Source: Candidatus Shapirobacteria bacterium GW2011_GWF2_37_20 (GTDB taxonomy: Bacteria; Patescibacteriota; Microgenomatia; UBA12405). Taken from it: a DNA stretch of 32,329 nt. The notes below the pieces were generated by a model that ran no database searches, was not told the origin of the DNA, and saw only the letters and a program-made list of their open reading frames with translations. Every line of letters begins with the position of its first letter. Within the stretch, counting starts at the first letter, position 1. The stretch covers positions 1 through 32,329 of the forward strand of contig LBTB01000007.1 of NCBI GenBank assembly GCA_000989305.1, read 5' to 3'. Position numbers and translations under genes: made by a program. This document shows positions 3,082-22,389 of this stretch, piece by piece.

Positions 3082-3169
3082 GGAAGGGTGCGCCGAATGG
3101 TAAGGCACGGGTTTGCTAAACCCGCGTCTCGTAAGAGGCATGGGGGTTCGACTCCCCCCCCTTCCGCCA
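3082..3169 (+). tRNA. tRNA-Ser(GCU), CCA encoded; integration target
   Basis: GGAAGGG...CGGGTTTGCTAAACCCG...GGGGGTTCGACTCCCCC CCCTTCC G CCA; anticodon GCT, long variable arm. Confidence 0.93.
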
Positions 3170-5138: not shown

Positions 5139-5516
5139 TTATTCGGTTATCATTTTATCCCCCGGTTTAGGATTTTCGTTTAATATAAAATTAACACCAA
5201 AAGGTACTTTTGAAGATTCGTGAGAGGAAGTATTTATAATGATATTTTTTTCTCTATAAGCCTGATGGTGATGTTTAAGCCAAAAAATTATGGCCGTTAA
5301 ATTTCCCTCTTTAATTTTTTTTATTAATTGAGATTCAGCTAAATCATTTATAAAATTAGTTCCATTGCCCAATACAACATTGGATTTTTTTCTAAATTTT
5401 TCATTTTCTTTTCGCCAGCGGTAGTAGGTTGCTCGACTAATACCAGCCTGTTGGCAAGCAATTTGAACTATGGGTGTAGTTTTTAAGCATTTAATTACTT
5501 TTCTTTTATTTCTCAT
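5139..5516 (-). CDS. HTH protein resembling phBC6A51-type small terminase subunits
   Basis: IACQQAGISRATYYRWRKENEKF HTH followed by AIIFWLKHHHQAYREK. Confidence 0.6.
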   Translation of the reverse strand: MRNKRKVIKCLKTTPIVQIACQQAGISRATYYRWRKENEKFRKKSNVVLGNGTNFINDLAESQLIKKIKEGNLTAIIFWLKHHHQAYREKNIIINTSSHESSKVPFGVNFILNENPKPGDKMITE

Positions 5517-6843
5517 CTAATATTGCCTTAAACCCAGTTAAATTTTCCCAGCGTTTTTTAATAACTTCGACGTAAGCTGGACATTTTTCCATAACAAAGC
5601 AACGCCGTTTCATTTTGGTGGCGGCAATTAAGGTGCTGCCACTACCACCAAAAGGTTCAATGATTAAATCACTCCTTTTGGTTAAGACTTTTATATAGGG
5701 GATTAGTATTTCAAGGGGCTTTGTTCCAAAAACTACTCCCTGTCCGGAACTGGCCTCGTCCGAAGCTTTATATTCGATAAAGTCTGTCGGCTGATACTTT
5801 TTACCCTTGTCATATCCTTCCCATTGAGGACTTCCTTTAATAGCAAAAAGGGCGGTTTCATATTCCTCCTGAAGACCTTCTGTTTCCTCCTCTAAATTAA
5901 ACTCAATATCGGTGTCCGGAGAGGCTCCGACCATGGCAATGTCGTGTTTTGAGAAAAATTTGTATTTGGCAGAAAAGCCCTGGCTGCGGTTTGGAAGATG
6001 CCAAACGAGCATATTTTTTACTCGCCAATACTTCTCCATTTCGGCCCAAATGATTCTGAGGTTTTTCCAGTTTTCATAAACGATTATGGAGAAGTTTTCC
6101 TTTTGAATTTTGGCAATATTAGCCATCCATAATTCAGTGAAATTTTCGGGGAGTGAATCGGTGCCAAGGTATTTACGGTTTTGTTTTTGACCAAAGCCTT
6201 TTGTTGGTTGTCCATCCCTCTTTTTATCTTTTAGATAATTCAAAAGATAAGGTGGGTCGGTAAAGCACATATCGGCTTTTTCATCACTCATTAATTTCAA
6301 AACATCCTCTTCTTTGGTTGAGTCGCCAACCATGAGCTTGGAATCACCTAATAGCCAAATGTCACCCTCTTTGGTATTAACTTCGTCAACTCCTGCTTTC
6401 TCTAAAGCTTTTTTTAAATTAAATTCTTCGGGAATATCTTCGATGTTAAAAATTTCGTCAAGATCTTCGGAATTAAAGCCGATATCTTTTAAAATATTTT
6501 CATCAAATTCTGCCAGTAACTTTAAATCAAATTCACCGGTGTTTTTATTTAAACGAAGATTTAGCTCTTTTTCCTTGTCGATGTCCGGGATATCAACATA
6601 AATTACCGGGACTTCCATAAAACCCAACTGTTTGGCAGCAAATAATCTGAAGTTACCGCCAATGATAATATTTTTTCTTTCAGGAGCAGAATTGGCAATA
6701 ATCGGATCAACTAATCCAAACCGTTTAATACTCTCCTTAAGATTGTTGGTCTGTTCCTTCGACCAACGCCTGGGGTTGTAATCGGGGGAAATTAAATCAT
6801 TAACACTTACTTTTACTGTTTTTATTTCATTTGAGTCAATCAT
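5506..6843 (-). CDS. ParB-like N-terminal domain fused to DNA N4/N6 methyltransferase
   Basis: PDYNPRRWSKEQTNNLKESIKRFGLVDPIIAN...IIIGGNFRLFAAKQLG (ParB-like), CFTDPPYLLNY (motif IV), IIEPFGGSGSTLIAATKMKRRCFVME (motif I). Start refined to ATG 6843 downstream of TTTAGGAG. Confidence 0.88.
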   Translation of the reverse strand: MIDSNEIKTVKVSVNDLISPDYNPRRWSKEQTNNLKESIKRFGLVDPIIANSAPERKNIIIGGNFRLFAAKQLGFMEVPVIYVDIPDIDKEKELNLRLNKNTGEFDLKLLAEFDENILKDIGFNSEDLDEIFNIEDIPEEFNLKKALEKAGVDEVNTKEGDIWLLGDSKLMVGDSTKEEDVLKLMSDEKADMCFTDPPYLLNYLKDKKRDGQPTKGFGQKQNRKYLGTDSLPENFTELWMANIAKIQKENFSIIVYENWKNLRIIWAEMEKYWRVKNMLVWHLPNRSQGFSAKYKFFSKHDIAMVGASPDTDIEFNLEEETEGLQEEYETALFAIKGSPQWEGYDKGKKYQPTDFIEYKASDEASSGQGVVFGTKPLEILIPYIKVLTKRSDLIIEPFGGSGSTLIAATKMKRRCFVMEKCPAYVEVIKKRWENLTGFKAILDEK

Positions 6844-6850
6844 AAAAAAA

Positions 6851-6904
6851 CTCCTAAATTTATAATCTGCCGACTGACTATCGGTAGTTACCATTTTTTA
6901 GGAG
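6851..6904 (-). promoter_or_regulatory. Structured 5' leader that may sequester the RBS of the ParB-MTase gene
   Basis: On the minus strand CTCCTAAA (6904-6897) can pair with TTTAGGAG (6858-6851), the latter containing the SD. An inner hairpin CCGA..TCGG lies between, and seven T precede the ATG. Confidence 0.45.
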
Positions 6905-7117: not shown

Positions 7118-8695
7118 ATGTCAGAAGAACAAAAAAGACTCCTCGAAAAACAATTATGGGCTGTAGCAAATATTCTTCGTGGCAAAATGAATGCAGACGA
7201 GTATCGAAACTACATTTTGGGGTTTATTTTTTATAAATACCTTTCGGAAAAGTTAGAACGGTACATCAACGAAAAACTTTTAAATCGGGAAGGTTTTACT
7301 TTTGCCGATATTAAAGAAGACACAAAACAAGGGAAAGCGATCTTGAATGAGGTAAAAAAAGCATGTGTTATTCATTTGGGTTTCTTTTTAAAACCTTCAA
7401 GTTTGTTTGACTATCTTGTTAAAAAAGGAAATGGAGAAATCGAAGGTCAAGACACCTTTATACTCGAGGATTTAAAAAATGTGCTCAATGCAATTGAGCA
7501 AACATCTATGGGCACCGCCAGCGAGGATGATTTTAAAGGCTTGTTTGATGACGTAGTTCTCACATCTCCCAAACTTGGTAAAACTGAACATAAAAAAAAC
7601 GAAGTCATAGTTGAAGTACTCTCCAAGTTAAGTGAGATAGATTTCAAATTGGAGGATTCAAAAAGCGATTTACTGGGTGACGCGTATGAATATCTAATCG
7701 GTGAGTTTGCTGCCGGTGCTGGTAAAAAAGGTGGCGAATTTTATACACCTGCTCAGGTGTCTAGATTGTTGGCTATGATCGTGACCGATGGTAAGAAACG
7801 AATAAAATCTGTTTACGATCCTACTTGTGGCTCTGGATCTCTCTTGCTCAGAATTGGTGATTACACCAATGTGTCGATGTATCTGGGGCAAGAGCTTAAT
7901 CCTACAACTTACAATCTCGCCCGCATGAATATGATTCTTCATGGAGTGCACTTTGACAATTTCAGCATTCGTCAAGGGGACACTCTAGTTGATGATATGC
8001 ACTTAGATTTACAGGCGGAAGCGGTAGTAGCCAATCCTCCATTTTCAGCGAAATGGAAAGGTGATAGTGATCCCGTTTTGGCTGCTGATGAACGTTTTAC
8101 TCAATACGGTAGATTAGCGCCCAAGGGTGCAGCTGACTTTGCCTTCGTAACCCACATGTTGTATCACCTTGCAGATAATGGGGTAATGGCCGTAGTGCTA
8201 CCTCATGGGGCACTTTTTCGCTCTGGAGCAGAAGAACATATCAGAAAATATATTATTGAAAAACAAAATTATCTCGATGCGGTAATAGGATTGCCCGCCG
8301 ATCTCTTTTACGGAACAGGAATTCCAGCAACAGTTCTTGTTTTTAAAAAATGTCGTAAAGACAATGAAGATATTTTATTCATTGATGCCTCAAAAGAGTT
8401 TGAAAGAGGTAAGAGTCAAACTAGACTAACCGGCGAAAATATTGAAAAAATATTCAGCACATACAAAGAAAGAAAAGAAATTGAAAGGTATTCTCATAAA
8501 GCAACAATAGAAGAGGTTAGAGAAAATGAATACAACTTAAATATTCCAAGATACGTAGATACTTTTGAGGAAGAGTTAGAAATTGACATAAAGCAAATTT
8601 CACAAGACTTTAAAGAAGTTTATAAAAAAGAGAAAATTTTGCACGACAAGATATCTAAGTTTTGTGATGAGTTAAAAATAGATAAGCCTTTTTGA
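7118..8695 (+). CDS. hsdM: Type I restriction-modification DNA methyltransferase (M subunit)
   Basis: GGEFYTPAQVSRLLAMI, YDPTCGSGSLLLRI, AVVANPPFSAKW. Confidence 0.96.
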   Translation: MSEEQKRLLEKQLWAVANILRGKMNADEYRNYILGFIFYKYLSEKLERYINEKLLNREGFTFADIKEDTKQGKAILNEVKKACVIHLGFFLKPSSLFDYLVKKGNGEIEGQDTFILEDLKNVLNAIEQTSMGTASEDDFKGLFDDVVLTSPKLGKTEHKKNEVIVEVLSKLSEIDFKLEDSKSDLLGDAYEYLIGEFAAGAGKKGGEFYTPAQVSRLLAMIVTDGKKRIKSVYDPTCGSGSLLLRIGDYTNVSMYLGQELNPTTYNLARMNMILHGVHFDNFSIRQGDTLVDDMHLDLQAEAVVANPPFSAKWKGDSDPVLAADERFTQYGRLAPKGAADFAFVTHMLYHLADNGVMAVVLPHGALFRSGAEEHIRKYIIEKQNYLDAVIGLPADLFYGTGIPATVLVFKKCRKDNEDILFIDASKEFERGKSQTRLTGENIEKIFSTYKERKEIERYSHKATIEEVRENEYNLNIPRYVDTFEEELEIDIKQISQDFKEVYKKEKILHDKISKFCDELKIDKPF

Positions 8696-8697
8696 AT

Positions 8698-9915
8698 ATG
8701 ATTACTTCACGAACAAAAAAAATACAACAACAAGATATACCAAAGCTTCGTTTTAAAAATTTTGACGACACTTGGAATGAAAAAGAATTAGGTGATTTAT
8801 TTATTGAAAGATCAGAGAGAGGTGGTGGTGAAAAATACAATCTTCTGTCAATAACATTAAGAGATGGCATAAAAAAACAAGAATCTTCTAACAAAACTGA
8901 TAATTCTAGTGAAGATAAAAGCAACTATAAAATTGTTCGTGTCGGTGATATTGCGTACAACACAATGAGAATGTGGCAGGGAGCATCTGGGGTCTCTGAT
9001 TTAGAAGGAATTGTAAGTCCCGCATATACTGTCGTTAAACTAAAAAGTGGTTGTGTTGATTTCTATAAATATCTTTTTAAAAAACCACGCACAATATTTG
9101 ATTTTTATCGTTATTCTCAAGGACTTACATCTGATACCTGGAATTTGAAGTATAAACATTTTTCAGAAGTTGCGGTAAAGATACCTGATAAACAAGAGCA
9201 AGAAAAAATCGCTTCTTTTTTAGAGTCGGTAGATAAGTTTATTGAAAATCTACAAACACATAAAGAATATTTGCTTGAATATAAAAAAGGAATGATGCAA
9301 AAAATTTTCTCCAAAGAAATTTGTTTCAGAGATGAGAAAGAAAATCTGTATCCAGATTGGAAGAAGAAGAAACTGAGTGACTTTTTGATTGAAAGAAATG
9401 AACAAGTTCCTAAAAGTGACCAGTATCCTTTAATGGCCTTTGTGGCATATAAGGGAGTGACACCCAAAGGAGAAAGATACAATCGGGAGTTTCTAGTTAA
9501 TGATAATGAAAACAAAAAATACAAACGAACAGAATATGGTGATTTTATTTATAGTTCAAATAACCTTGAAACTGGCTCTATAGGTCTAAATTGTTTTGGT
9601 TTCGCAAGCATTTCACCTGTTTACAGTATTTTTAAGATTACAGAATCGTGTGACCACAAATTTATGGGTAGTTATTTAGTTCGTAAAAGCTTTATAAATA
9701 AAATGATTAGATACAGACAAGGTGTAGTATATGGACAATGGAAAATTCACGAATCAGATTTTTTAAGGATCGAAGAGAAGATTCCCTCTATAGAAGAGCA
9801 ACAAAAAATCGCTGATTTTTTGTCAGCTATTGATGAATTAATCTCGATTAAACGTGAGCAGATAACCAATGCCGAGCAGTGGAAAAAGGGATTATTACAA
9901 CAAATGTTTGTCTAA
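8698..9915 (+). CDS. hsdS: Type I R-M specificity subunit
   Basis: Two TRD/conserved-helix repeats: IPDKQEQEKIASFLESVDKFIENLQTHKEYLLEYKKGMMQKIF and IPSIEEQQKIADFLSAIDELISIKREQITNAEQWKKGLLQQMF. ATG 8698; an in-frame TTG at 8692 overlaps the hsdM stop. Confidence 0.95.
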   Translation: MITSRTKKIQQQDIPKLRFKNFDDTWNEKELGDLFIERSERGGGEKYNLLSITLRDGIKKQESSNKTDNSSEDKSNYKIVRVGDIAYNTMRMWQGASGVSDLEGIVSPAYTVVKLKSGCVDFYKYLFKKPRTIFDFYRYSQGLTSDTWNLKYKHFSEVAVKIPDKQEQEKIASFLESVDKFIENLQTHKEYLLEYKKGMMQKIFSKEICFRDEKENLYPDWKKKKLSDFLIERNEQVPKSDQYPLMAFVAYKGVTPKGERYNREFLVNDNENKKYKRTEYGDFIYSSNNLETGSIGLNCFGFASISPVYSIFKITESCDHKFMGSYLVRKSFINKMIRYRQGVVYGQWKIHESDFLRIEEKIPSIEEQQKIADFLSAIDELISIKREQITNAEQWKKGLLQQMFV

Positions 9916-9919
9916 CACT

Positions 9920-12715
9920 ATGCCACAATCAGAACTTCAACTAGAAAAAGAGTTAATCGAACAACTAACCACATTAGGTTTTGAGAAAGTTGCATTACCC
10001 GACAATGTAACACTTGAGACAAATTTACGTTCCCAGCTTGAAAAATTTAATGGGATTAAGCTTACCGACAACGAATTCGCTCGGATTATTAATCACCTTC
10101 AAAAAGGTGATCGCTTTCAAAAAGCTAAGACGCTTAGGGACCGTTATTTACTTGCTCGCGATGACGAAAGCACTGTATATATTCGTTTTTTTAACATGGA
10201 CAAATGGTGTAAAAACGAATATCAAGTTACTCACCAACTCACTCAGGCAGGTAAATACGAGAATCGTTATGATGTAACACTACTCATTAATGGCTTGCCA
10301 CTGGTCCAAATTGAACTCAAGCGACGTGGTATGGAAATGAAAGAGGCATTTAATCAGATTCAGCGCTATCACCGCCACTCTTTTACAGGTACCTTATTTG
10401 AATATATTCAAATATTTGTCATTTCTAATGGAGTTAACACTAAATATTTTTCTAATAACCCCAAACAATCATTTGAGCAAACCTTTTTCTGGACTGACGA
10501 AGCGAATCAAAAGATAACCCAACTCAGCGAATTTGCTGACGCATTCTTAGAGAAATGTAAGGTCTCAAGTATGATTGCCGAATACATAATATTAGCTGAG
10601 TCACTGCAGATCCCAATGGTCCTTCGTCCATATCAATACTTTGCGGTCAAAGCTATTGAAAAAAAAGTTAGGGAATCAAATAAAAACGGCTATATTTGGC
10701 ATACAACTGGATCGGGTAAAACTCTTACATCCTACAAAGCAAGCCAAATTCTCTCCCAAATGCCAGAAATCAAAAAGGTTTTATTTGTGGTAGACAGAAA
10801 AGATTTAGACATTCAAACTACCAAAGAATTCAACTCGTTTTCCGATGGTTCAGTTGACGGTACAGATAATACACGCAATTTGGTCAAACAGCTCAAAGAC
10901 CCAAATAGAAAACTAATTGTAACTACGATTCAAAAACTGGATATAGCGATCTCCAGAGCATCATATCTAAGTCAATTCCAATCACTTCTTGATGGTAAAG
11001 TGGTAATAATTTTTGACGAATGTCACCGAAGCCAGTTTGGTTTAACACATGCTCGTATTACTAGTGCCTTCAAAAACGCCCAGTTGTTTGGTTTTACTGG
11101 TACACCCATCTTTGCAGATAATAATATCGGTGGAGTAACCACAGCTGATGTTTTTGGAGAATGTTTACACAAATACATCATCACCCATGCTATAGATGAC
11201 AATAACGTTCTAGGTTTCGCGGTTGAATATGTAGGTAAATACACCCAAAAAGATGCCAATACACTCGACGCCGATATCTTTGCTGAAACACTAGTAGAAG
11301 GTATTGACACTAAGGAGGTACTTGAAAGCGATGAACGGCTGAATAAGATTGCTGATTATGTGTTGGCTGATTGGAAACGCAAGACCAAGAACGGAAAGTT
11401 TAACGCACTCTTTGCTACTCCAAATATTGAAGTTCTCAAAAAATATTACACATTGCTTAAGCAGAAAAAAACAGACGATTTTAAAATGGCCACTATCTTC
11501 ACCTATCAAGCCAATGAAGACGACAGCACCGACATGCTCGATGTAGATATTTTTGCTGGAGAAGGAACTGTTGGTAACCAGCACTCTCGTGATTTTTTGG
11601 AAGGATGTATTTCTGACTATAATGCCCTGTACGGTACCAATTATTCAACAGAGCGTTTTTACGATTATTATCGCAACCTACAACAACGGATTAAAGATAA
11701 AGAGGTCGATTTAGTGCTTGTCGTCAATATGTTTTTAACTGGATTTGACAGCCCAAGACTTAATACCTTATATGTCGACAAAAATTTACGTTATCACGGA
11801 TTGATTCAGGCTTATTCTAGAACGAATCGACTTTTAAACTCTGACAAACCACACGGCAATATTATTTCATTTAGAAATCTCAAACTCAACACCGACAAAG
11901 CGCTAGCATTATTTGGGGACGAAAATGCCAAAGAAATTGTTTTTAAAAAACCATATGAGGAACAAAAAAAGGATTTTAAGGAAAAGTTAACCCAGTTACG
12001 AGAAAAGGTCCCAACAGTTGACTCCGTAGATAGTTTGCAGGGAGAAGAAGAAAAGGCCGTTTTCGTCAAGACTTTTCGTGATTTACTCCGAATTAAATCT
12101 TCACTCGAGACCTTTGCTGGTTTTTCCTTTAATGATTTAGATATTTCTGAGCAAGAGTTTTATGACTATCAGAGCAAGTATTTGGACATTCACGAAGAAC
12201 GAAAAAATCATGACACAGACATTGAATCTATATTAGACCAAATCGACTTTGAACTTGAATTGACGGTACGCGATATTATTGATTTTGATTATATAATTCA
12301 GCTAATAATCGGGCTAAAAGATATAAGTTCTGAGATAATACGTCAGAAAAAGACCGAAGACATTCTCAAACTTTTTGATAGAGACGTGAAGCTTCGTAAG
12401 AAAAAAGACTTGATACGTAAATTTATTGAGGAAAATTTGCCAAAAATTGATAAGGGAGAAAGTGTTGGAAATGCATTTGAAGAGTTCTGGTCGAGTGAAC
12501 GTTCGACTGCTTTGAAAGAGGTCGCTCAATCTGAGAGTATTCCTCTTGAAAAATTCCAGAATGTCATTGGTGAGTATCTTTATACCCAAAAGTTACCCCA
12601 CGACCAAGATATAGTCGATTTATTACCAGAATCTCCAAGAATTATGGAGCGTCAGGGAATTGTTGACCGTATCAAAAATGCAATAGAAAAAATTATTGAT
12701 ATTTTTGAATGGTAA
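9920..12715 (+). CDS. hsdR: Type I R-M restriction subunit
   Basis: QIELKRRGMEMKEAF (nuclease domain), GYIWHTTGSGKTLTSYKA (Walker A), IIFDECHRSQFG, FTGTPIF. Start refined to MPQSELQ at 9920. Confidence 0.96.
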   Translation: MPQSELQLEKELIEQLTTLGFEKVALPDNVTLETNLRSQLEKFNGIKLTDNEFARIINHLQKGDRFQKAKTLRDRYLLARDDESTVYIRFFNMDKWCKNEYQVTHQLTQAGKYENRYDVTLLINGLPLVQIELKRRGMEMKEAFNQIQRYHRHSFTGTLFEYIQIFVISNGVNTKYFSNNPKQSFEQTFFWTDEANQKITQLSEFADAFLEKCKVSSMIAEYIILAESLQIPMVLRPYQYFAVKAIEKKVRESNKNGYIWHTTGSGKTLTSYKASQILSQMPEIKKVLFVVDRKDLDIQTTKEFNSFSDGSVDGTDNTRNLVKQLKDPNRKLIVTTIQKLDIAISRASYLSQFQSLLDGKVVIIFDECHRSQFGLTHARITSAFKNAQLFGFTGTPIFADNNIGGVTTADVFGECLHKYIITHAIDDNNVLGFAVEYVGKYTQKDANTLDADIFAETLVEGIDTKEVLESDERLNKIADYVLADWKRKTKNGKFNALFATPNIEVLKKYYTLLKQKKTDDFKMATIFTYQANEDDSTDMLDVDIFAGEGTVGNQHSRDFLEGCISDYNALYGTNYSTERFYDYYRNLQQRIKDKEVDLVLVVNMFLTGFDSPRLNTLYVDKNLRYHGLIQAYSRTNRLLNSDKPHGNIISFRNLKLNTDKALALFGDENAKEIVFKKPYEEQKKDFKEKLTQLREKVPTVDSVDSLQGEEEKAVFVKTFRDLLRIKSSLETFAGFSFNDLDISEQEFYDYQSKYLDIHEERKNHDTDIESILDQIDFELELTVRDIIDFDYIIQLIIGLKDISSEIIRQKKTEDILKLFDRDVKLRKKKDLIRKFIEENLPKIDKGESVGNAFEEFWSSERSTALKEVAQSESIPLEKFQNVIGEYLYTQKLPHDQDIVDLLPESPRIMERQGIVDRIKNAIEKIIDIFEW

Positions 12716-12727
12716 AAAAAATTAATT

Positions 12728-15286
12728 ATGAAAACTGATCAACAAATACTGAATGAATTGTTGTCCCAAGTGAATTCTGATCCATTCAAAATTATTGAAG
12801 ATACCTTAATAATAAAGCCTAATTTTTCAAGAGAGTCAGTGATTAAATATCTTTCCGAGTTTTCCAATAGAATAAGTGGAGTAGGATTCTTGTCGAATGA
12901 AATAGTAGACCTAATAGTCAGACTGGGTAAGCTATATAAGCCTGGTTCTATATTAGATCCAGCCTGTGGAATGTGTCAGATATTATCAAGGATTGACTAT
13001 TGTAAAGATATAAATGGTTTCGAGTTAAATAGTAAGCTTGCAAAAATTTCTAAAGCACTTAACCCAGACATAAAAATAAAAGCTAATAATTTTTTAAATG
13101 ATGACATTAGAGAAAAATACGATCAAATAATCCTAGTGCCACCATTTGGGATGCGATTACAGATTCTCAATAAGCACGAAACATCAGAAAGCGCGTTTAT
13201 AAAGAAATCATTAAACTTACTTAATAGTAACGGAAGTCTAATTGCTTTAGTTCCTAATGGGTTTTTATTTTCTCCTCGATTTGAGGTTTTAAGGAAATCA
13301 ATTCTTACGGAATATTATTTAGAAGCTGTGATAGAACTTAATTCTGGGGTATTCAAAAATACAGGTATATTAACATCTGTTCTCGTTATAAAAAAAGACA
13401 ATCCCATACATAAAGAAAAAGTATATTTTGGTCAATATAAAAATGATTCACAAACCATCGTTAATAATTTTCAAGAACAAACTGGAGATTTTTGGATAGA
13501 CAGATCTAGACTTAATAATAGAATTGATAGAAGTTTTTTCAACCCTGAATTTGATGATATTGATAAACAATTGTCGGGGATAGAGGTTAAAAAACTAGAA
13601 GAGATTGCTAAATTAATTAGGGGTCCTTATATACCAAGAGAGGAATTGTATGATTCTGGAAATTATTTAGTAATGAGTGGAAAAAATATAAAAGACGGAA
13701 AACTCAATCTAACATCAAACGACAAATATATAAAAGAATACAGTCCACGTCAGGAAAAAGCGTTATTAAGAAAAGGCGACATTGTTGTAAGTCTTATTTT
13801 TAGCGAAAACAAAATTTACATTCACAATTCAGAAGAAAAAATAATTGCCAACAACAATTGTGCAATTATTAGGTCCACAAACCTGGGACCATATCTATCT
13901 TCATATATATCCTCTGTACAAGGCAACCTTTTAATAAAAAAACAGATGGATAGAAAGCGTCATGGTGATGTGATTCCTAGCATCAACATCAGTGACCTTA
14001 GACAATTAATAATTCCGATCGTTTCTATAGATGATCCGAATAGGATTGTCGATCAGAATATTTCTGCCAGTGAAAGATATGCACTAATCGAGTCACTTCT
14101 AGAAGATCAACTTGTAAAGAAAGGTTGGGATGTAAGAGACGAGAGTGGTCCTCCCCATATTTCCTTAGATTTAGGTCTTTATATTAATGGAGAACTGGCT
14201 AGTTTTGTAGAAGTTAAATCTCCTAGAGTAAATCTGGAAAGAGTTGGTACACAAGTTTCCTATGTCATGAACGAAGTAGGAGTAACGACAGCTTTTGTTG
14301 TAAGGGGTAACAATTTATATCGCTTTTCGTTGGGAAAATTTATAGAAATCGATGAGTTTCCTACAGCGACAGAGTTTAATAATATTACCCAGAATAAGGT
14401 TAGCTCCGGTGAAAAATATAATGAATCAATCTCGAATCTTGAAAAAATGGTTAGCCAGCTACTTTCTCAGAACAAAGAACTTATCGAAAGAACAAAAAGA
14501 ATCGAGACTACGGTTAATGAAATAAAGGACATATTAGTCTCACTGCAAAATGACTTTAAGGAAATTAAAAAAGAAGATCGTAAAGAAGAGGAAAAGCTTG
14601 TTTTGCTATATAAAAAAATTGATAAAAGACTGGATGAGAAAAATGAAGAACTGAAAGAAGAAATAGACGCTTATACAGACATTGCTAAATCACTCATAAC
14701 AAATTGGAATAAACTTGAACCCTTGAGTAAGGAATATTATCCTCTTGCTGAGTATTTATATTCCAAACTACAATCCCTGCCCGATATAGATTTTTCACCC
14801 GTTATTCTTCAATACTGTAGAACTATTGAGAACGAACTATTAAGGAAGCTGTTTATTAAATTTACTAAATTTCTGCTAAACAAATATGATCCTCTTGAAG
14901 ACTTTTTAGTTGATGATTTATCTAAAGATGGAAAAGGGAAAGACAAGCCAATAAAACAATTTGCACATATGATCATCCAGTGTAGAGACAAAAATGACGA
15001 CGAAATAAAATACACCTTAGGAACTATGCATTTTATTCTAAATTATGCGGCTTCTCAAAAAAATAAAGAAACGAGTCCTTTAATTAAGGAGTTTGTTGAC
15101 TATATTGAAGATAAATTTGATAGTAAAATCGTACTTTCGACAAATTATTTAAAAGAAATAAAAGATATTATTGACGATTTTAGAAACAAGTGTGCTCACC
15201 CTTCTAAATTAAGTTTTAACGAAGCGAGAGAATGCAAAAAACGAATGCCGATGGATATAAATACTTTTATAGATTGTCAAAAATAA
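12728..15286 (+). CDS. Fusion: degenerate N6-MTase (HsdM-like), TRD-like region, PD-(D/E)XK-like (HSDR_N-like) domain, coiled coil, C-terminal HEPN-like motif
   Basis: LDPACGMCQIL (motif I-like); IILVPPFGM replaces NPPF; KLEEIAKLIRGPYIPREEL..GNYLVMSGKNI (TRD-like); LDLGLYINGELASFVEVKSPR (D..EVK); long charged helix; FRNKCAHP (R-x4-H). Confidence 0.7.
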   Translation: MKTDQQILNELLSQVNSDPFKIIEDTLIIKPNFSRESVIKYLSEFSNRISGVGFLSNEIVDLIVRLGKLYKPGSILDPACGMCQILSRIDYCKDINGFELNSKLAKISKALNPDIKIKANNFLNDDIREKYDQIILVPPFGMRLQILNKHETSESAFIKKSLNLLNSNGSLIALVPNGFLFSPRFEVLRKSILTEYYLEAVIELNSGVFKNTGILTSVLVIKKDNPIHKEKVYFGQYKNDSQTIVNNFQEQTGDFWIDRSRLNNRIDRSFFNPEFDDIDKQLSGIEVKKLEEIAKLIRGPYIPREELYDSGNYLVMSGKNIKDGKLNLTSNDKYIKEYSPRQEKALLRKGDIVVSLIFSENKIYIHNSEEKIIANNNCAIIRSTNLGPYLSSYISSVQGNLLIKKQMDRKRHGDVIPSINISDLRQLIIPIVSIDDPNRIVDQNISASERYALIESLLEDQLVKKGWDVRDESGPPHISLDLGLYINGELASFVEVKSPRVNLERVGTQVSYVMNEVGVTTAFVVRGNNLYRFSLGKFIEIDEFPTATEFNNITQNKVSSGEKYNESISNLEKMVSQLLSQNKELIERTKRIETTVNEIKDILVSLQNDFKEIKKEDRKEEEKLVLLYKKIDKRLDEKNEELKEEIDAYTDIAKSLITNWNKLEPLSKEYYPLAEYLYSKLQSLPDIDFSPVILQYCRTIENELLRKLFIKFTKFLLNKYDPLEDFLVDDLSKDGKGKDKPIKQFAHMIIQCRDKNDDEIKYTLGTMHFILNYAASQKNKETSPLIKEFVDYIEDKFDSKIVLSTNYLKEIKDIIDDFRNKCAHPSKLSFNEARECKKRMPMDINTFIDCQK

Positions 15287-15293
15287 TAACAAC

Positions 15294-15962
15294 ATGTATA
15301 AATTATCGCCTTCTGATTTTGCTTATCTTTATGAAGAATGTAAGCATTGTTATTATCTAAAAATAAAATATGGCATTACTCAGCCAAGCATGCCGATGCC
15401 AGGGGTGTTTTCGGCTTTAAATACCAGAATTCAGGGTTCTTTAGTTGGAAAAAACTTTAACGTTTTATCCCCTAGTTTGCCCGACTGTCAGGTTATTTTC
15501 CAGGAAGGATTTGTTGAATCAATTCCTATTCCCGACACTTCTTGTTTTATTAAAGGTAAGTATGATCTTCTATGTCAGAATTCAGATAGTACTTATACTT
15601 TAGTTGATTTGAAAATAAGCCAAGCGGATGTGGGTAAAATTGAAAAATATAAAACCCAATTAACGGCATATAAATACGCCATGGAGAATCCAAAAAGTAG
15701 TAATCCAATTAAGATTACTAAAATGGGATTATTAATTTTTTATCCCAACACAGTTTCTTTTGAAAATGAGAGTGCTAAGGTTGATTTTCCGCCCAAATGG
15801 TTAGAAATACCCGCCGATGAAGCTGCTTTTGTGAATTTTATTAAAGAAGTTGATAAACTTTTAGCTGGTCCGCTTCCAGCAGATAATCCGGAATGTAAAT
15901 GGTGCAAATATCTTAAGGAGAATAAAGAATCAATGGGTGATCAAGAGAAATTCCCATTTTGA
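15294..15962 (+). CDS. PD-(D/E)XK nuclease, Cas4/RecB-like, with paired Cys
   Basis: FIKGKYDLLCQNSDSTYTLVDLKIS...KYKTQLTAYKYAME core; CKHC at N-terminus and CKWC at C-terminus suggest an Fe-S cluster. Confidence 0.75.
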   Translation: MYKLSPSDFAYLYEECKHCYYLKIKYGITQPSMPMPGVFSALNTRIQGSLVGKNFNVLSPSLPDCQVIFQEGFVESIPIPDTSCFIKGKYDLLCQNSDSTYTLVDLKISQADVGKIEKYKTQLTAYKYAMENPKSSNPIKITKMGLLIFYPNTVSFENESAKVDFPPKWLEIPADEAAFVNFIKEVDKLLAGPLPADNPECKWCKYLKENKESMGDQEKFPF

Positions 15963-15982
15963 TTAAATGCTAATATTGCTTA

Positions 15983-17605
15983 GTGTTGAAAAAAGCTGTT
16001 AGTTTTATTGCACCGGTTCTTTTTTTGATTTTAGCTCTTGTTGTTTCATTTCTCCTTACTTCTCCGTCTCAACCTAAATTTGTAATCGATATTCTGTTTT
16101 ATACAAAAGTATTAATATTATTTTCTCTTGTCTTTACTCTGACTTATTTTATTGATATCGCTTTTTCCGGCTTCAAAAAACCGGTAGTTAAGCTAATTAC
16201 TTTTGGGATAACCTTTATTCTTTCTTGTTTTTTATTCTTCATAGAAGACAAGATAACCAAGGACAGTCAACTGAATTTTGTTTTTCAAATATTTTTAGTG
16301 GTGATTGTGGGAGTATATGTCTTTTATTTTATCCGCTGGCCCCTAAAAGGTATTTTTTATTTAATTAAAAAAATAAAATGGAAATTTGTTCAAAGCTTTG
16401 TTGCCTATATTGAACACTTGATTGAACCAATTTATTATTTTCCCTTAAAACTAGTTACTTATTCGACTTATTATCTAATAAAATTTTTAATTAAGGTTAC
16501 GATTGAACTGATTAAAATCATTATTGATGCTGGCAAATTTACCTTTAGAAGTTTTAGAAATTTTCTAAAATCCTTATTAGTTTTCTGTCTTGGCTTATAT
16601 GTTATTGCCTCACTTTTTGTGATTGTTGATTATATTCGGACTCAATATGGTCAATACGGCAAGTTTTTTTGTTCGGCTGGAGTTAAAAATAAATTAAAAG
16701 GGACGGTGGTGAGGGTTGTGGGTGGTTATTCTGAAGGAACAGGTTTTTTTATCTCAGAAAATCAAGTGTTAACTAATTTTCATGTCATTGCTGATGAACC
16801 TAGTCCTAAAATAATTTTCCCTAATGGTAAATTTATTACTCCCATAAAAATTACTGGTGATAAAGATGCTGATTTAGCTATTTTATTTACCGAGTATGAA
16901 TACCCAGAGATGGTTATGTCACTACCTAGTAAAATTTCCATCAAGGATGAAGAACCGCTTCTGGCAACTGGTTTTGCTATGGGAACAGATTTAGCTGGTA
17001 AAGCCACTGTCTTGAAGGGTAATTTTGCTGATTTTAGGGAGTCAAAATATGAAAGTGTCAGTTATATTCAAACTAATATTTCTCTAGTGGAAGGGATGAG
17101 TGGTGGCCCACTGACAGACCAATGCGGTCAGGTGGTTGGGATAAATACTGCCGGTCTAGCGGGATTATCAATGTTTATATCCGGAAGTGAAGCCAAAAAA
17201 ATAATTCCTGATTTTTCAGATCAAGAAATTGAAAAAATTGATGTCGATCCCAGTAAATCACCGGAAGATGCAGTTACTGCCTTTTATACTTATCTTAAGG
17301 CTAGAAAAATGAAGGAGGGTTTTGATCTATTAAGCCGGGAATATCTTCAAAAGACTAATTTTGAAGAGTGGACTAGCCGATTTAAGGATATTTTGGATGT
17401 AGAAATTGTTAAATCAGAAAAAGTGGAAGATTCAAAAGATACTGTTAATGTAAAATTTGGCACTAAAAATTGGGTGACTGAAGAAACTGAATTTCACTAT
17501 TACGAGGGAACTTGGAAAACAATTTTTGAAGACGGGAAATATAAGATGCTGAAAAGTAATATTAAAGAAATTGAAGATCCTGATTTTGATTGGTTTTATG
17601 ACTAA
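15983..17605 (+). CDS. Multi-TM membrane protein with trypsin-like (HtrA/S1C-like) protease domain and C-terminal NTF2-like region
   Basis: Several TM helices; triad motifs VLTNFHVIAD (His), DADLAIL (Asp), EGMSGGPL (Ser). GTG start. Confidence 0.8.
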   Translation: MLKKAVSFIAPVLFLILALVVSFLLTSPSQPKFVIDILFYTKVLILFSLVFTLTYFIDIAFSGFKKPVVKLITFGITFILSCFLFFIEDKITKDSQLNFVFQIFLVVIVGVYVFYFIRWPLKGIFYLIKKIKWKFVQSFVAYIEHLIEPIYYFPLKLVTYSTYYLIKFLIKVTIELIKIIIDAGKFTFRSFRNFLKSLLVFCLGLYVIASLFVIVDYIRTQYGQYGKFFCSAGVKNKLKGTVVRVVGGYSEGTGFFISENQVLTNFHVIADEPSPKIIFPNGKFITPIKITGDKDADLAILFTEYEYPEMVMSLPSKISIKDEEPLLATGFAMGTDLAGKATVLKGNFADFRESKYESVSYIQTNISLVEGMSGGPLTDQCGQVVGINTAGLAGLSMFISGSEAKKIIPDFSDQEIEKIDVDPSKSPEDAVTAFYTYLKARKMKEGFDLLSREYLQKTNFEEWTSRFKDILDVEIVKSEKVEDSKDTVNVKFGTKNWVTEETEFHYYEGTWKTIFEDGKYKMLKSNIKEIEDPDFDWFYD

Positions 17606-17652: not shown

Positions 17653-18198
17653 ATGGTCAAGATCAAAAAGATAAAAAAATCAGATGATCCTAGGGTGGGT
17701 GATAAAAACTTAATCCCAAGAAACGCCGCCATAATAGAACAAACCCTAGATTCTCTAGGAATAACCGCCAGGGTTGCCGAAGTAAACTATCGACCAAAAG
17801 ATACTGAATTTTGTCTTGAAATAGCGCTAGGTACGCCACTCGAAAGCATTACCAAGCTACATAAGGATGTAGCCATGGCTTTAGCTTCTCCTACCGGTGA
17901 TGTTGATATTGAAGCCCCAATTCCTGGACGATCTTTGATCGCAATTAGATTGCCATTTGATAAGCAGAGGTATGAGGCGGCAATTAATGCTTTTAAATTG
18001 AGGCAGAAAGAAGAAAAAAGAAATTCCAAAAAAAGCCGTACCACTGACAAAACCAAAACTGACAGACCAGAGTTTCCTAAAACGATTCGCGACTATCTAG
18101 CTGTAGTTTTTTATATTATTGCCGGTATTTTGGATATAACTACCCAGTACCTGCGTAAGTTAGGTAATTTTATTGAAGGCAGAGATCGTCAATTTTAA
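17653..18198 (+). CDS. Stand-alone FtsK alpha-domain-like protein
   Basis: IIEQTLDSLGITARVAEVNYRPKDTEFCLEIALGTPLESITKLHKDVAMALASPTGDVDIEAPIPGRSLIAIRLP resembles the FtsK alpha domain. Confidence 0.7.
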   Translation: MVKIKKIKKSDDPRVGDKNLIPRNAAIIEQTLDSLGITARVAEVNYRPKDTEFCLEIALGTPLESITKLHKDVAMALASPTGDVDIEAPIPGRSLIAIRLPFDKQRYEAAINAFKLRQKEEKRNSKKSRTTDKTKTDRPEFPKTIRDYLAVVFYIIAGILDITTQYLRKLGNFIEGRDRQF

Positions 18199-18209
18199 TT
18201 TATATAAAC

Positions 18210-19235
18210 ATGCTGACTTATAAACCATCCCAAGAAGCCACTATAGAACGCGATGTCATGTTTGATGAGGCGGTTAAGCTAATCCAAGAAACTGGAGTCG
18301 CTTCGGCCTCGCTTATCCAAAGACGTTTAAAATTAGGTTATGCCAGATCAGCCCGACTTTTAGATGAGCTCGAACAAAGCGGAATTATTGGAGAAGTAAA
18401 TGGAGCTAAACCCAGAGATATTTTAATTCCACATAAAAACAGAGAAGGTCAAACAATTATTCCTAAAAAAGAACCGAGTCCAGTAAAAATTGAGTTTGAA
18501 GAGACATTAGCTAGTTGGAAAAAGACAAAACACGCCGACAATGTATCTGAAAATTTTAAAATTGAACTTGGAATTGATGAAAATAAAAAAGAAGTAGATT
18601 TAAATCTTGAAAAATATGGCAACTTATTAATAATCGGCTCACAATTTACCTCAACTGTTGACTTGTTAAATAATATATTAACCACTAGTATGGCTAAATA
18701 TTCACCTAATGAATTGAAATTAATTGTCATTGATGGCGTTAAAGGCGATCTGATTGTCCCCAATCAAGCTTCTCATTTATTGACGCCAATGATTGTCGAA
18801 GCAGAAAAGTCCGTTAGTGCTTTAAAATGGTGTGTCAATGAGATTGAAAGACGGATGAAACTGGATAATCTAAATCCTCAAGCTAAGGTTCTAATTTTGA
18901 TCAATTCACTTAATCAAATTCTAAATTTTTCTCCATCAGAGATTGAAGATAATATTTATCGGATCATGGTCCAGGGAAGAAAATATGGCTTCTATTTTAT
19001 TATCAGCACTGACTACGCCAATCCCAGAACAGCCAAATCAATTATAGCCAATAGTCCAGCTAAACTAGTCTTCAAGCCAACGGATAAAAAGATTGCTAGA
19101 GAGTCGGGTATACCCGAAGCCATCGAGCTTTCATCACCCGATGAGGCTATTTTAGAAACTATGTATGAAGGCAAAAGAAAACTGACAATCAATAAAGTTG
19201 ATCCAAAGAAAATCTATAGAGAAATATTTGAATAG
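18210..19235 (+). CDS. FtsK-like protein with N-terminal gamma wHTH and C-terminal motor domain lacking Walker A
   Basis: ASASLIQRRLKLGYARSARLLDELEQSGIIGEVNGAKPRDIL (gamma domain) precedes NLLIIGSQFTSTVDLLNNIL (Walker A position, no GxGKS) and LKLIVIDGVKGDL...SHLLTPMIVEAEKSVSALKWCVNEIERRM (motor signature). Confidence 0.75.
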   Translation: MLTYKPSQEATIERDVMFDEAVKLIQETGVASASLIQRRLKLGYARSARLLDELEQSGIIGEVNGAKPRDILIPHKNREGQTIIPKKEPSPVKIEFEETLASWKKTKHADNVSENFKIELGIDENKKEVDLNLEKYGNLLIIGSQFTSTVDLLNNILTTSMAKYSPNELKLIVIDGVKGDLIVPNQASHLLTPMIVEAEKSVSALKWCVNEIERRMKLDNLNPQAKVLILINSLNQILNFSPSEIEDNIYRIMVQGRKYGFYFIISTDYANPRTAKSIIANSPAKLVFKPTDKKIARESGIPEAIELSSPDEAILETMYEGKRKLTINKVDPKKIYREIFE

Positions 19236-19584: not shown

Positions 19585-19749
19585 ATGACAAAAGAAATTA
19601 TTTACAACATGTTGATATCTGGTATTAAGGGATTTTTTGAAGGACTATGGTCCCTGCTTGTTGCCCTTCCTTGGTGGGTAAAGATTTTAGTAATTGTTTT
19701 AGTTTTATTTCCAATTTTCTTTAATAGATATAAAGGAAAAAGATATTAA
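19585..19749 (+). CDS. Small single-TM protein (54 aa)
   Basis: MTKEIIYNMLISGIKGFFEGLWSLLVALPWWVKILVIVLVLFPIFFNRYKGKRY*. TAATG overlap with the next gene. Confidence 0.65.
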   Translation: MTKEIIYNMLISGIKGFFEGLWSLLVALPWWVKILVIVLVLFPIFFNRYKGKRY

Positions 19750-20840
19750 TGGACTACCTAAAAGACCGACAATATTATGAAGATTTATATGATTTACACA
19801 CTATCGAAATTTGTATTGATTGGGTAAAATTAGCTTTAAAAAAGTGTAAAGAAGACAAGATTTTTAGTAAATTTCCAAAAAAAGATAAGATAAGAGGTAA
19901 AAATATTTTGATTGAGTTGCCACTTTATTACCAAAAAGGTGAACGTTATAGAGATAAAGAAAAGACGATTAACGAATGGATAGAAAAAGACAAAAATAAA
20001 CAAGATAAATTTGACGACACAAGAGAACTGGACAGTATTTTTTGCCAGGAATGTAACTGGGCAATGAAATTAGAGGGAAAAAGTCTGCACGATTTTTCTG
20101 ATGAACCATTAAGAATGCTTTTCTTTTTTGAGTGTCCTAATTGTCATAAACGAAGAGGTATTTTTGATGACGGAGAAGAATATAAAAGTAAACCAAGACT
20201 CTGTCCCAAGTGCGGTGATGAGCTTAAAATCAGTTATAAAAATGAAAAAGAAGTTTCATCCTTTACTGAAAAATGTAAAAGTTGTGATTATAAACTCGAA
20301 GATAAAACCGATTTTAAACTTTATGACGAAAAACAGAAGAAGAGGGAAGAGAGAAAAGAATATTTATTAAATAAATATCGTAAAGAATGTTGTTTAACAC
20401 CTGAAAAGGGTGAGAATTATGTTTCCAGTCAAACCCAATTAATAAACTCAATCGATCGAATTAAAGAAACGGAAAGAAAAGAAGCCGATCCTATTTACCA
20501 AAAGGCCAGAGCCTTAAAGAAATTGAAAGTATTTGATATGGAAAAGTTGTTAAAAGAAACCTTGGAAAAAGAAAAATATATCGACCTTTCCTTTGATAAA
20601 CCCGAGATTACTAAGGATGTAGTAATTCCATTCTCGGTTCAGGAATCGGACACTTCAAGAAGTGATTATGACAGCCAAAATAATCTAAAAAAGTTGATTA
20701 AAAAGACCTTAGAAGATACCAATTGGCGATTAATGAGTGATGGAATTAGCCAAAGGCTTGGGATATTAAATGGTAGAATCAGGGGCTACGAAAACGAGGA
20801 TGATTTAGTAAAAATTGTAAAATATGCAAATGATCAATGA
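19749..20840 (+). CDS. Multi-zinc-ribbon hypothetical protein
   Basis: Four CxxC pairs: CQEC, CPNC, CPKC, CKSC. Confidence 0.7.
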   Translation: MDYLKDRQYYEDLYDLHTIEICIDWVKLALKKCKEDKIFSKFPKKDKIRGKNILIELPLYYQKGERYRDKEKTINEWIEKDKNKQDKFDDTRELDSIFCQECNWAMKLEGKSLHDFSDEPLRMLFFFECPNCHKRRGIFDDGEEYKSKPRLCPKCGDELKISYKNEKEVSSFTEKCKSCDYKLEDKTDFKLYDEKQKKREERKEYLLNKYRKECCLTPEKGENYVSSQTQLINSIDRIKETERKEADPIYQKARALKKLKVFDMEKLLKETLEKEKYIDLSFDKPEITKDVVIPFSVQESDTSRSDYDSQNNLKKLIKKTLEDTNWRLMSDGISQRLGILNGRIRGYENEDDLVKIVKYANDQ

Positions 20841-22389
20841 CTCTAATCTTACAAAACTCAAAACTGGACTATTATTTCTAGATTTCGACCAGATCAACAA
20901 GGAGCCAGAATATGAAGCAATGGGAAGACAGACAAAAAAGCATTCTGTAATCTCCAAAAGATACCAATATGCTCAGGATTTAGAAAGGTCATTCATCGAG
21001 GCAAAACTTACCTCCAAGCTATTGCTTGAGGTAGATAATCTAATAAATGTTGATGAAAAAATATTTGAGCCTGAAGAAATAATTTCATACTACGACGGAA
21101 TATTCCTGGAATACATTCATCAAATAAAAGACAAACTTTTCCGATTAATATGGTGGATAATTCAAAAGGATGATGTGAAGAATAAAATAGAAGAGCCTGA
21201 CTCAATCAATCTGGGAAATTTTAAATCATATAAAGACATATTACTTGTGATAGGCATTAAAAAATATTTGGAAGATTGGAACCAAGGATTATCTAGCGGA
21301 ATTGCAACTGCCTTAAGAAAACGGACACAACATCACCATTTTATTAGTAGGCTGCAATTGAACGAAGACTTTCAAAAAATCAGGATGTCAAAGTCAATGC
21401 TTTCTTCGGCTTCAATTGGGTACTTGTCTGAATACGGAAAAAATAAAATGAAACAAATTGGTGAAGAATCGTATAAAAAGTGGAGAGATGACGTAATTAA
21501 CAAACAAAAAAATACATTGGATCAAATAGAAAGTAATTTAGAAAATGTGTCTAAGAAACTCATTGAGTTTTATAAATTTCCCATTGAGCCCAAAAAACAA
21601 GCCGAAATATTTAATACATATGCAGAACAGCAAAAAAAATTTGACATTGAAAACAGCACGTCTTTAGCTAAGATCGATGGGGCAATAAAAGGTCTCATTG
21701 ACACGTTTATATTACATACAAAGTCATTTTTTAAAGAACAGTTAGTTTCAATTTACCTAGTAGGAAGTGTACCTCGCGGCGAGTTTGTTCTGGGTTCTTC
21801 AGACATTAATATCGTGATAATAACCAATAGTGACGCCTTTGACTCTTTTCCATCCAGAATGGATCCACTAATAAAAGTTAGATTTTTCAGTGAAAATAGC
21901 TTTTTAAGTGAAAACAATAAGAAATGGAGATTTATTTGTTGGTCTGACGGACTTCTTATTGAAGGTAAACAGTTTAAATTTAAAAAAGATGACTTTCCAA
22001 AGCCCGGTACGTTTTTAACATTACTTCTAAACAGCAATACTATTGATGAATTAGAAGAATTAAAACATAAAGTTGCTAATTTGAAGTCACCATCAAGAAA
22101 AATAATGCGGTTTTTCTGTTTAGAGGCAGTCAAATTAATGCTGGATTTTGGTTTTGGTGTTGCAATGGCAAACAAACCTTTTTACTCATCCAGCAGAAAA
22201 GTCAAAATTGAATACGTCAAAAAGATGTTTCCGTCGGCATTAAGACAAACAAAAACATTTGAAATTATATATAAAGGGGCAACTGTTAATCAGAAAGATT
22301 ACGTTTTCATGTTAGACACATTTCTTAAAAATGCGAGAAAAAACTACACCAAGCTTTCTGAAGTTGCCCAAAGTGCCGTAGAGGGTTAG
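20824..22389 (+). CDS. Putative HEPN-like plus MNT-type nucleotidyltransferase fusion protein
   Basis: N-terminal all-helical region with LRKRTQHHHFISRL (R-x4-H); C-terminal VGSVPRGEFVLGSSDINIVII (GS...SDxN, Pol-beta NTase-like). Overlaps the upstream ORF by 17 nt. Confidence 0.6.
   Translation: MQMINDSNLTKLKTGLLFLDFDQINKEPEYEAMGRQTKKHSVISKRYQYAQDLERSFIEAKLTSKLLLEVDNLINVDEKIFEPEEIISYYDGIFLEYIHQIKDKLFRLIWWIIQKDDVKNKIEEPDSINLGNFKSYKDILLVIGIKKYLEDWNQGLSSGIATALRKRTQHHHFISRLQLNEDFQKIRMSKSMLSSASIGYLSEYGKNKMKQIGEESYKKWRDDVINKQKNTLDQIESNLENVSKKLIEFYKFPIEPKKQAEIFNTYAEQQKKFDIENSTSLAKIDGAIKGLIDTFILHTKSFFKEQLVSIYLVGSVPRGEFVLGSSDINIVIITNSDAFDSFPSRMDPLIKVRFFSENSFLSENNKKWRFICWSDGLLIEGKQFKFKKDDFPKPGTFLTLLLNSNTIDELEELKHKVANLKSPSRKIMRFFCLEAVKLMLDFGFGVAMANKPFYSSSRKVKIEYVKKMFPSALRQTKTFEIIYKGATVNQKDYVFMLDTFLKNARKNYTKLSEVAQSAVEG

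What the first reader, a model, noticed from the sequence alone, without database searches (positions are those of the whole stretch)
12728..15286. 852-aa fusion: catalytically degenerate methyltransferase + target recognition + nuclease + HEPN-like tail
It lies directly downstream of hsdMSR. The N-terminus resembles HsdM, but motif IV is LVPPFG (13133-13150) instead of NPPF and motif I is DPACGMC. A TRD-like segment follows, then LDLGLYINGELASFVEVKSPR (about 14165-14226, D...EVK), a charged coiled coil, and FRNKCAHP (R-x4-H, 15182-15199). Established: HEPN R-x4-6-H domains are often RNases in defence, and type I R-M loci can host anticodon-nuclease guards such as PrrC. Inference: a non-methylating DNA reader that senses unmodified sites or R-M failure and triggers DNA and/or RNA cleavage. 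I do not know of a described protein with this exact domain order.
Basis: partly seen in the sequence, partly recalled or inferred. Interest (0 to 1): 0.82.

Follow-up and report, generated by a model that had tools for sequence, protein, structure and literature searches.

The report
Inactive DNA-methylase fused to putative nucleases
Directly behind a complete bacterial restriction-modification operon lies a gene for a protein that looks like a DNA-reading methyltransferase which has lost its catalytic residue and gained a DNA-cutting-like domain and a probable RNA-cutting tail, and it may act as a back-up immune effector against phages.

Summary
ORF 12728-15286 (852 aa) is intact and starts 12 nt after the stop of a complete hsdMSR operon. 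Pfam finds N6_Mtase (39-244) and Methylase_S (284-441); motif IV reads VPPF instead of NPPF. Residues 447-541 carry D481...E495-V-K497 in register with HsdR's nuclease (weak sequence statistics, fold search inconclusive). A coiled coil and an all-helical tail with RNKCAH follow (HEPN probable, not proven). A close sister hsdMSR operon (HsdM/HsdR 78% identical) lacks the gene, so it is an accessory. No full-length relative was found. New here: MTase-TRD fusions that lost the same Asn recur on plasmids (13 of 17 readable fusions versus 0 of 11 HsdM), several beside hsdMSR; one carries a C-terminal Schlafen AlbA_2 domain and one is followed by a Swt1-HEPN gene. Best reading: a catalytically dead, sequence-specific DNA reader carrying DNase and RNase effectors, a PrrC-like back-up to the R-M system. 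Which sites it reads, what protects the host and whether the effectors work are unknown; its TRD does not resemble the neighbouring HsdS. New variant of a known kind, pending bench tests.

The parts
12728..15286 (+). 852-aa protein P0001: pseudo-methyltransferase, TRD, HsdR-like nuclease, coiled coil, HEPN-like tail
12842..13459 (+). N6_Mtase domain, residues 39-244 (no HsdM_N domain found)
   Evidence: Pfam PF02384 E 8.3e-16
12956..12976 (+). motif I DPACGMC (SAM site), near canonical
13133..13150 (+). degenerate motif IV LVPPFG; Asn replaced by Val
13577..14050 (+). target recognition domain, residues 284-441 (single TRD)
   Evidence: Pfam PF01420 E 1.1e-9
14066..14350 (+). HsdR-like PD-(D/E)XK candidate, residues 447-541, D481, E495, K497
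   Evidence: predicted order helix-strand-strand-helix-strand-strand-strand; no significant fold match
14408..14707 (+). charged coiled-coil segment, residues about 561-660
   Evidence: long helices in a low-confidence model; 44% charged over residues 560-660
14681..15283 (+). HEPN-like tail, residues 652-852
   Evidence: Abi_2 E 0.0044-0.0069, below cut-off; remote match to C-term of Priestia protein P0016
15182..15199 (+). RNKCAH, R-x4-H motif, residues 819-824
7118..8695 (+). hsdM, intact NPPF
   Evidence: TIGR00497 above cut-off
8692..9915 (+). hsdS, TTG start as listed
   Evidence: PF01420, two stretches
9869..12715 (+). hsdR
   Evidence: TIGR00348 above cut-off; HSDR_N, EcoR124_C

Best explanation
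P0001 is a catalytically dead, sequence-specific DNA reader coupled to effectors and linked to the type I R-M operon in front of it. Shown: MTase and TRD domains, loss of the motif IV Asn, the place behind hsdMSR, the accessory (variable) nature. Probable from weak homology and motif register: an HsdR-type PD-(D/E)XK domain and a HEPN-like tail. Inferred: the MTase-TRD half binds SAM and one type of half-site, dimerises through the coiled coil, and cannot methylate; on foreign DNA, or when the HsdMSR complex is missing or inhibited, it is released or stays bound long enough to let the HsdR-like domain cut DNA and the HEPN tail cut RNA, stopping the phage or the cell. It would work like PrrC, the tRNase silenced by its neighbouring type I enzyme, but with its own DNA-reading half.
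For: Domains. Motif IV VPPF in P0001 against NPPF in the adjacent HsdM; among 17 readable MTase-TRD-type fusions 13 lack N/D/S at this place, 0 of 11 HsdM do. Not a recent copy of the neighbouring hsdM: 28% best identity, and HsdM_WIN groups with HsdM of G014 instead. Sister genome G014 has hsdM and hsdR 78% identical but no P0001 behind hsdR. Effector swap elsewhere: Pseudoalteromonas 783-aa fusion with motif FPPI has SLFN_AlbA_2 at 623-766 (E 1e-15) before hsdM and hsdS; Synechococcus fusion (CPPW) is followed by a Swt1-HEPN gene (E 5e-12). D481...EVK lines up with HsdR ..DLGLFINGLPVATVELK..; top of 501 sequences including 500 shuffles, but by a small margin. R-N-x3-H with a polar residue after R fits the HEPN rule and PrrC precedent described in PMC3710099 (passages).
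Against: TRD not detectably similar to either HsdS TRD (E 1.9), so no evidence that HsdMS protects its sites; what protects the host is unexplained. HEPN and nuclease matches are below curated cut-offs. Structure models low confidence and fold search without significant hit. Nuclease BLASTP against a named HsdR finds nothing. No second protein with this architecture, so no conservation test of the catalytic residues was possible. 4 of 17 fusions keep N or D in motif IV, so loss is not universal.
Confidence: 0.45

Rival explanations
1. A permuted type IIG-like restriction enzyme: the dead MTase-TRD only positions the HsdR-like nuclease at its site, a separate methyltransferase (HsdMS or the ParB-MTase fusion at 5506-6894) protects the host, and the tail is a dimerisation or folding domain without RNase activity.
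For: The same three modules with intact MTase occur in another order in the Acinetobacter plasmid protein L023:5152-7419 (HSDR_N 18-91 E 7.9e-8, N6_Mtase, then a TRD-like end). DNA MTase genes lie nearby.
Against: Type IIG enzymes as reviewed have N-terminal cleavage domains and active MTases (PMC3874165, passages); here the nuclease is C-terminal and the MTase dead. HsdS TRDs differ. The tail motif would be unexplained.
Confidence: 0.25
2. A regulatory or specificity-altering partner of HsdM/HsdS/HsdR: the pseudo-M plus single TRD joins the M2S complex in place of an M or S and changes site choice or restrains the operon; the C-terminal part is structural.
For: Related pseudo-M/S fusions without any extra effector domain sit next to hsdM, hsdS and hsdR in Lactococcus, L. 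amylovorus, Sulfuricurvum and Aromatoleum. Two-M type I enzymes exist (PacII M1M2S, PMC9613975, passages).
Against: Does not explain the HsdR-like D...EVK or RNKCAH. No HsdM_N domain was found in P0001.
Confidence: 0.18
3. A decaying relic of an M-S-R fusion with no function.
For: Only one copy known; close sister operon works without it.
Against: 852 codons open, junctions tight (12 nt after hsdR stop, 7 nt before the next gene), TRD and candidate active-site residues kept.
Confidence: 0.12

Closest known systems
PrrC anticodon nuclease guarding a type I R-M system (PrrI)
   Same: RNase-type effector encoded with hsdMSR; HEPN-type R-x4-6-H logic; second line of defence (PMC3710099 passages; PMC2610378 listing abstract)
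   Different: PrrC has ABC-type NTPase domains; P0001 has none found and instead a pseudo-MTase, TRD and nuclease
Type IIG R-M enzymes and the Acinetobacter HSDR_N-MTase-TRD protein L023:5152-7419
   Same: nuclease, gamma-MTase and TRD in one chain
   Different: domain order permuted, MTase dead, extra coiled coil and HEPN-like tail
Type 1 1/2 MTases and M/S fusions (single TRD)
   Same: MTase plus one TRD
   Different: motif IV Asn lost, effector domains added
HEPN-REase fusions of R-M loci (PMC3710099)
   Same: HEPN with REase-fold DNase in R-M context
   Different: that paper says HEPN fuses to nucleases, helicases and ATPases but not to methylases (passage); here a dead methylase is part of the chain
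Pseudoalteromonas nigrifaciens 783-aa fusion (WP_089369358.1)
   Same: motif IV FPPI pseudo-MTase beside hsdM, hsdS and hsdR, with C-terminal effector-like domain
   Different: effector is SLFN_AlbA_2; no nuclease or HEPN tail seen; Pfam did not call a TRD in it

Membership tests
Active gamma-class N6 DNA methyltransferase (HsdM/type IIG) | motif IV NPP(Y/F/W) | tested here: not met
   VPPF in P0001; definition from PMC3874165 passage
Active gamma-class N6 DNA methyltransferase (HsdM/type IIG) | N6_Mtase fold with SAM motif I | tested here: met
   PF02384 E 8e-16; DPACGMC
HsdM subunit | HsdM_N domain and TIGR00497 | tested here: not met
   neither reported for P0001; both found for the neighbouring HsdM
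HsdS-type specificity | Methylase_S domain | tested here: met
   PF01420 E 1.1e-9, one copy
Type IIG R-M enzyme | N-terminal cleavage domain on an active MTase | tested here: not met
   candidate nuclease is C-terminal to the TRD, MTase motif IV degenerate
PD-(D/E)XK nuclease, HsdR N-terminal type | D...(D/E)xK in HSDR_N register | tested here: inconclusive
   residues present (D481, E495, K497); HSDR_N E 0.045, below cut-off; hhalign P 0.0025, probability 12%
PD-(D/E)XK nuclease, HsdR N-terminal type | fold | tested here: inconclusive
   single-sequence model pLDDT 67 with compatible strand order; no significant PDB match
HEPN superfamily | Rx4-6H with polar residue after R in an all-helical domain | tested here: inconclusive
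   RNKCAH present; Abi_2 E 0.0044, below cut-off; helical but low-confidence model
HEPN superfamily | RNase activity | not testable with these tools
   needs a bench assay
PrrC | ABC NTPase domains | tested here: not met
   none found by Pfam, NCBIfam or PADLOC
MADS (methylation-associated defence system) | MAD2 and MAD5 equivalogs | tested here: not met
   28.5 and 32.1 bits against cut-offs 720 and 400

The most novel reading that the evidence does not exclude
A class of R-M-linked immune sensors in which a catalytically dead methyltransferase-TRD module is a general DNA reader with interchangeable effectors, in cis or in trans: HsdR-like DNase plus HEPN here, Schlafen AlbA_2 in Pseudoalteromonas, a separate Swt1-HEPN gene in Synechococcus, and bare readers elsewhere.
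Probability: 0.33. Interest if true: 0.85.

Novelty: new variant of a known kind. Interest (0 to 1): 0.62.

Why it matters
If true, type I R-M operons recurrently carry a non-methylating copy of their own DNA-reading machinery as a second line of defence. That would turn a group of genes now annotated simply as N-6 DNA methylase or subunit M/S into candidate sensors. It would also qualify the published generalisation that HEPN domains in R-M loci do not fuse to methylases, since the methylase here is dead. It makes a testable question out of how a cell notices that its R-M system has failed.

Tried and rejected
MADS, BREX PglX and type IIG membership were considered and not upheld. P0002 (Cas4-like PD-(D/E)XK) and P0003 (trypsin-like) were considered as partners because nuclease-protease pairs are reported in immunity (PMC12799240, passages), but that nuclease is of the MBL fold, and a P0003 relative with a PD-(D/E)XK gene next to it occurs in another genome (G036) in the absence of R-M genes in the part read; I count them as outside the system. 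RptR, a repressor near type I R-M, is a small unrelated protein (PMC12255303, abstract and passages).

Searches without a relative of the whole protein: own-family and other relatives, 9 of 95 genomes matched, all but the window's own partial; class, 19 of 373 matched at E 1e-6, all but its own partial, and the three opened (L035, L005, L032) are intact NPPF/NPPY enzymes; C-terminal half in phylum, 2 of 379, the other a match in a different gene family read from its ORFs; tail at E 0.1, 15 of 379, 14 besides its own, two opened and unconvincing; tail profile, 5 of 379, the four others not opened. Genome sets overlap. Genome contigs: 1 locus of 45 pattern matches. Viral contigs: none in four scans. 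Plasmids: no match for the C-terminal half at E 1; phages: 2 records, MTase part only. The Priestia match to the tail has E 8 in the search and 1e-6 only as a chosen pair; I use it as a lead. The other two records of that search (Rhizobium) and the nuclease hits were set aside as chance; for the Rhizobium locus I looked at the ORFs.

Structure: residues 440-852 gave mean pLDDT 47.9 and were not searched. Residues 442-555 gave 67.2; Foldseek had no match at E 0.001 (an HsdR fragment, 3h1t, ranks sixth at E 0.25), and the second look had best Z 5.2 to an unrelated fold: no support, and no evidence against. PDB sequence searches: MTase hits only for the whole protein, none for the nuclease, Focal adhesion kinase at E 0.8-1.6 for the tail, taken as chance, none for the tail profile. 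In the shuffle test the nuclease scored 5.6 bits and the best of 500 shuffles 5.0, so the margin is thin.

The M/S survey is not random: I opened 19 loci with single-ORF hits from lists and dropped the others in those lists. Of 19 fusion rows two (Roseomonas, Roseovarius) are split into two genes and my translation across them is not readable, so 17 were counted. Two short M proteins without TRD (L024, L028; motif IV with D) were kept apart from both counts, and one further locus (L081) was fetched and not used. The tree needs at least three label changes, so the fusions are not one clade, and the place of P0001 is weakly supported (67/70). Papers: listings; no paper describing this architecture was seen, but subscription journals and preprints are mostly not held.

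Full report
Observation. The window is a whole contig (C7) of a 0.81 Mb, 17-contig genome; the size suggests a reduced, Patescibacteria-like lineage (inference, no name is given). Genes 7118-8695, 8692-9915 and 9869-12715 are hsdM, hsdS and hsdR. The next gene starts 12 nt after the hsdR stop and runs 852 codons to 15286; the gene after it starts 7 nt later.

N-terminal half. Pfam places N6_Mtase at 39-244 and Methylase_S at 284-441, both above cut-off. No HsdM_N domain was reported, unlike for the neighbouring HsdM. Aligned with HsdM, motif I is DPACGMC (HsdM DPTCGSG) and the acidic residue of motif II is kept (GFELN), so SAM binding is plausible; motif IV is VPPF instead of NPPF. Motif IV NPP(Y/F/W) forms the catalytic site of gamma-class MTases (PMC3874165, passage), and in PacII a double mutant of this Asn and the Phe affects catalysis (PMC9613975, passages). 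P0001 is therefore very probably unable to methylate; this is inference from motif, not shown.

Middle. Residues 447-541 read helix, strand, strand, helix, then three strands in a single-sequence model with mean pLDDT 67 (model residue 1 is residue 442). D481, E495 and K497 lie on ISLDLGLYINGELASFVEVKSPR, which lines up with the catalytic stretch of HsdR proteins, for example IDLGLFINGLPVATVELKTD of the Roseovarius plasmid HsdR. Pfam HSDR_N aligns in the same register but at E 0.045; a local HsdR profile gives hhalign P 0.0025 with 12% probability, and a score of 5.6 bits against at most 5.0 in 500 shuffles. PDB fold searches gave nothing significant and BLASTP against one HsdR nothing. I call it a probable, unproven HsdR-like PD-(D/E)XK domain.

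Tail. After a charged coiled coil comes a helical region ending in FRNKCAHP. R-N-x3-H with a polar residue after R is the published HEPN pattern (PMC3710099, passage). Abi_2, which that paper places in the Abi2/Swt1 group of HEPN domains, matches the last part of its profile (151-182 of 184) at the motif, at E 0.0044 to 0.0069, below its cut-off. A Priestia plasmid protein (P0016) matches 92% of the tail query at E 8 in the search and 1e-6 as a chosen pair, with ENEL, LGxxHF and RNKxAH in the same order. HEPN is probable, not proven. The model of 440-852 is of low confidence (47.9).

Accessory status. Genome G014 of the same family has hsdM and hsdR 78% identical to the window's and an hsdS of different specificity (30%), but the genes after hsdR are unrelated and no relative of the C-terminal half is there. 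P0001 is thus an optional addition. The genes behind it, a Cas4-like protein and a membrane-anchored trypsin-like protease, have an adjacent counterpart pair in G036, with no R-M gene in the ORFs listed there, so the R-M island most likely ends at 15286.

A wider pattern. The MTase-TRD half is similar to fusions on plasmids and in one Bacillus genome. I opened 19 fusion loci; 17 could be read through one ORF. In 13 of the 17, the window included, the motif IV Asn is V, H, F, I or C; 4 keep N or D. All 11 HsdM proteins taken from these loci, the window and G014 keep N (Fisher p 7e-5; rows are related and chosen, so this is descriptive). Of the 13, annotated hsdM and hsdS genes lie beside the fusion in 6: the window, Lactococcus, L. 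amylovorus, Aromatoleum, Sulfuricurvum and Pseudoalteromonas; in the remaining 7 the stretch shows an HsdR alone (Oscillatoria), an MTase gene alone (Cyanobacterium) or neither by name. Two Asn-keeping fusions, Bacillus and Salimicrobium, also sit beside such genes. Pfam calls both domains in the window protein and in the Lactococcus, Sulfuricurvum and Aromatoleum proteins; in the Paenibacillus, Annamia, Synechococcus and Pseudoalteromonas proteins it calls the MTase only, and the rest of the fusion claim there rests on BLAST coverage.

Effectors. The Pseudoalteromonas fusion (783 aa, motif IV FPPI) ends in SLFN_AlbA_2 (E 1e-15), and a second AlbA_2 protein lies between hsdS and hsdR. The Synechococcus fusion (CPPW) is followed by a Swt1-type HEPN gene (E 5e-12) with the motif RNRSAH. 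Most fusions carry no such domain. So pseudo-MTase-TRD proteins have met RNase-like domains in at least three ways, which favours a reader-plus-effector reading but is only three cases.

Mechanism. I think it most likely that P0001 is a non-methylating DNA reader with DNase and RNase effectors that backs up the R-M system, working like PrrC but not a member of it, as no ABC domains were found. The weak point is self-protection. The TRD is not like either HsdS TRD, so the HsdMS mark may not be what it reads. Control by protein contact with the HsdMSR complex, as for PrrC, is the alternative that I prefer. Rivals are a permuted type IIG-like nuclease, a specificity or regulatory partner, and a relic.

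Relation to known work. PMC3710099 states that HEPN domains in R-M systems fuse to endonucleases, helicases and ATPases but not to methylases (passage). P0001, if its tail is HEPN, is a case where a methylase is in the chain but dead, beside a nuclease domain. The Acinetobacter plasmid protein L023:5152-7419 shows the same HSDR_N, MTase and TRD modules in another order with N kept in motif IV. Searches of the literature showed no description of this architecture.

Noticed in passing
window 17653-18198 and 18210-19235: FtsK alpha domain as its own small gene, followed by a gene with FtsK gamma in front of a motor domain whose Walker A looks degenerate: an unusual permuted, split FtsK.
   Followed up: no
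window 15294-17605: Cas4-like PD-(D/E)XK gene followed by a membrane-anchored trypsin-like protease; an adjacent counterpart pair occurs in G036 contig C92.
   Followed up: partly
window 5506-6894: ParB-like domain fused to a DNA methyltransferase, next to a transposase-type HTH gene and a serine recombinase (3768-5093) beside tRNA-Ser (3082-3169): likely edge of a mobile island.
   Followed up: no
L022:5274-5573, L027:4897-5400, L077:5021-5263: DUF4258 genes lie directly in front of the degenerate M/S fusions in Aromatoleum, Oscillatoria and Roseomonas; other loci (L074, L076, L078, L079) have a small hypothetical gene there.
   Followed up: no
L024:5959-7320: Lactobacilli plasmids carry a second short M protein (DPPY motif IV) before hsdM, hsdS and hsdR, possibly a two-M type I system.
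   Followed up: no
window 20824-22389: 521-aa protein with a weak nucleotidyltransferase match, next to a zinc-ribbon protein (19749-20840).
   Followed up: no
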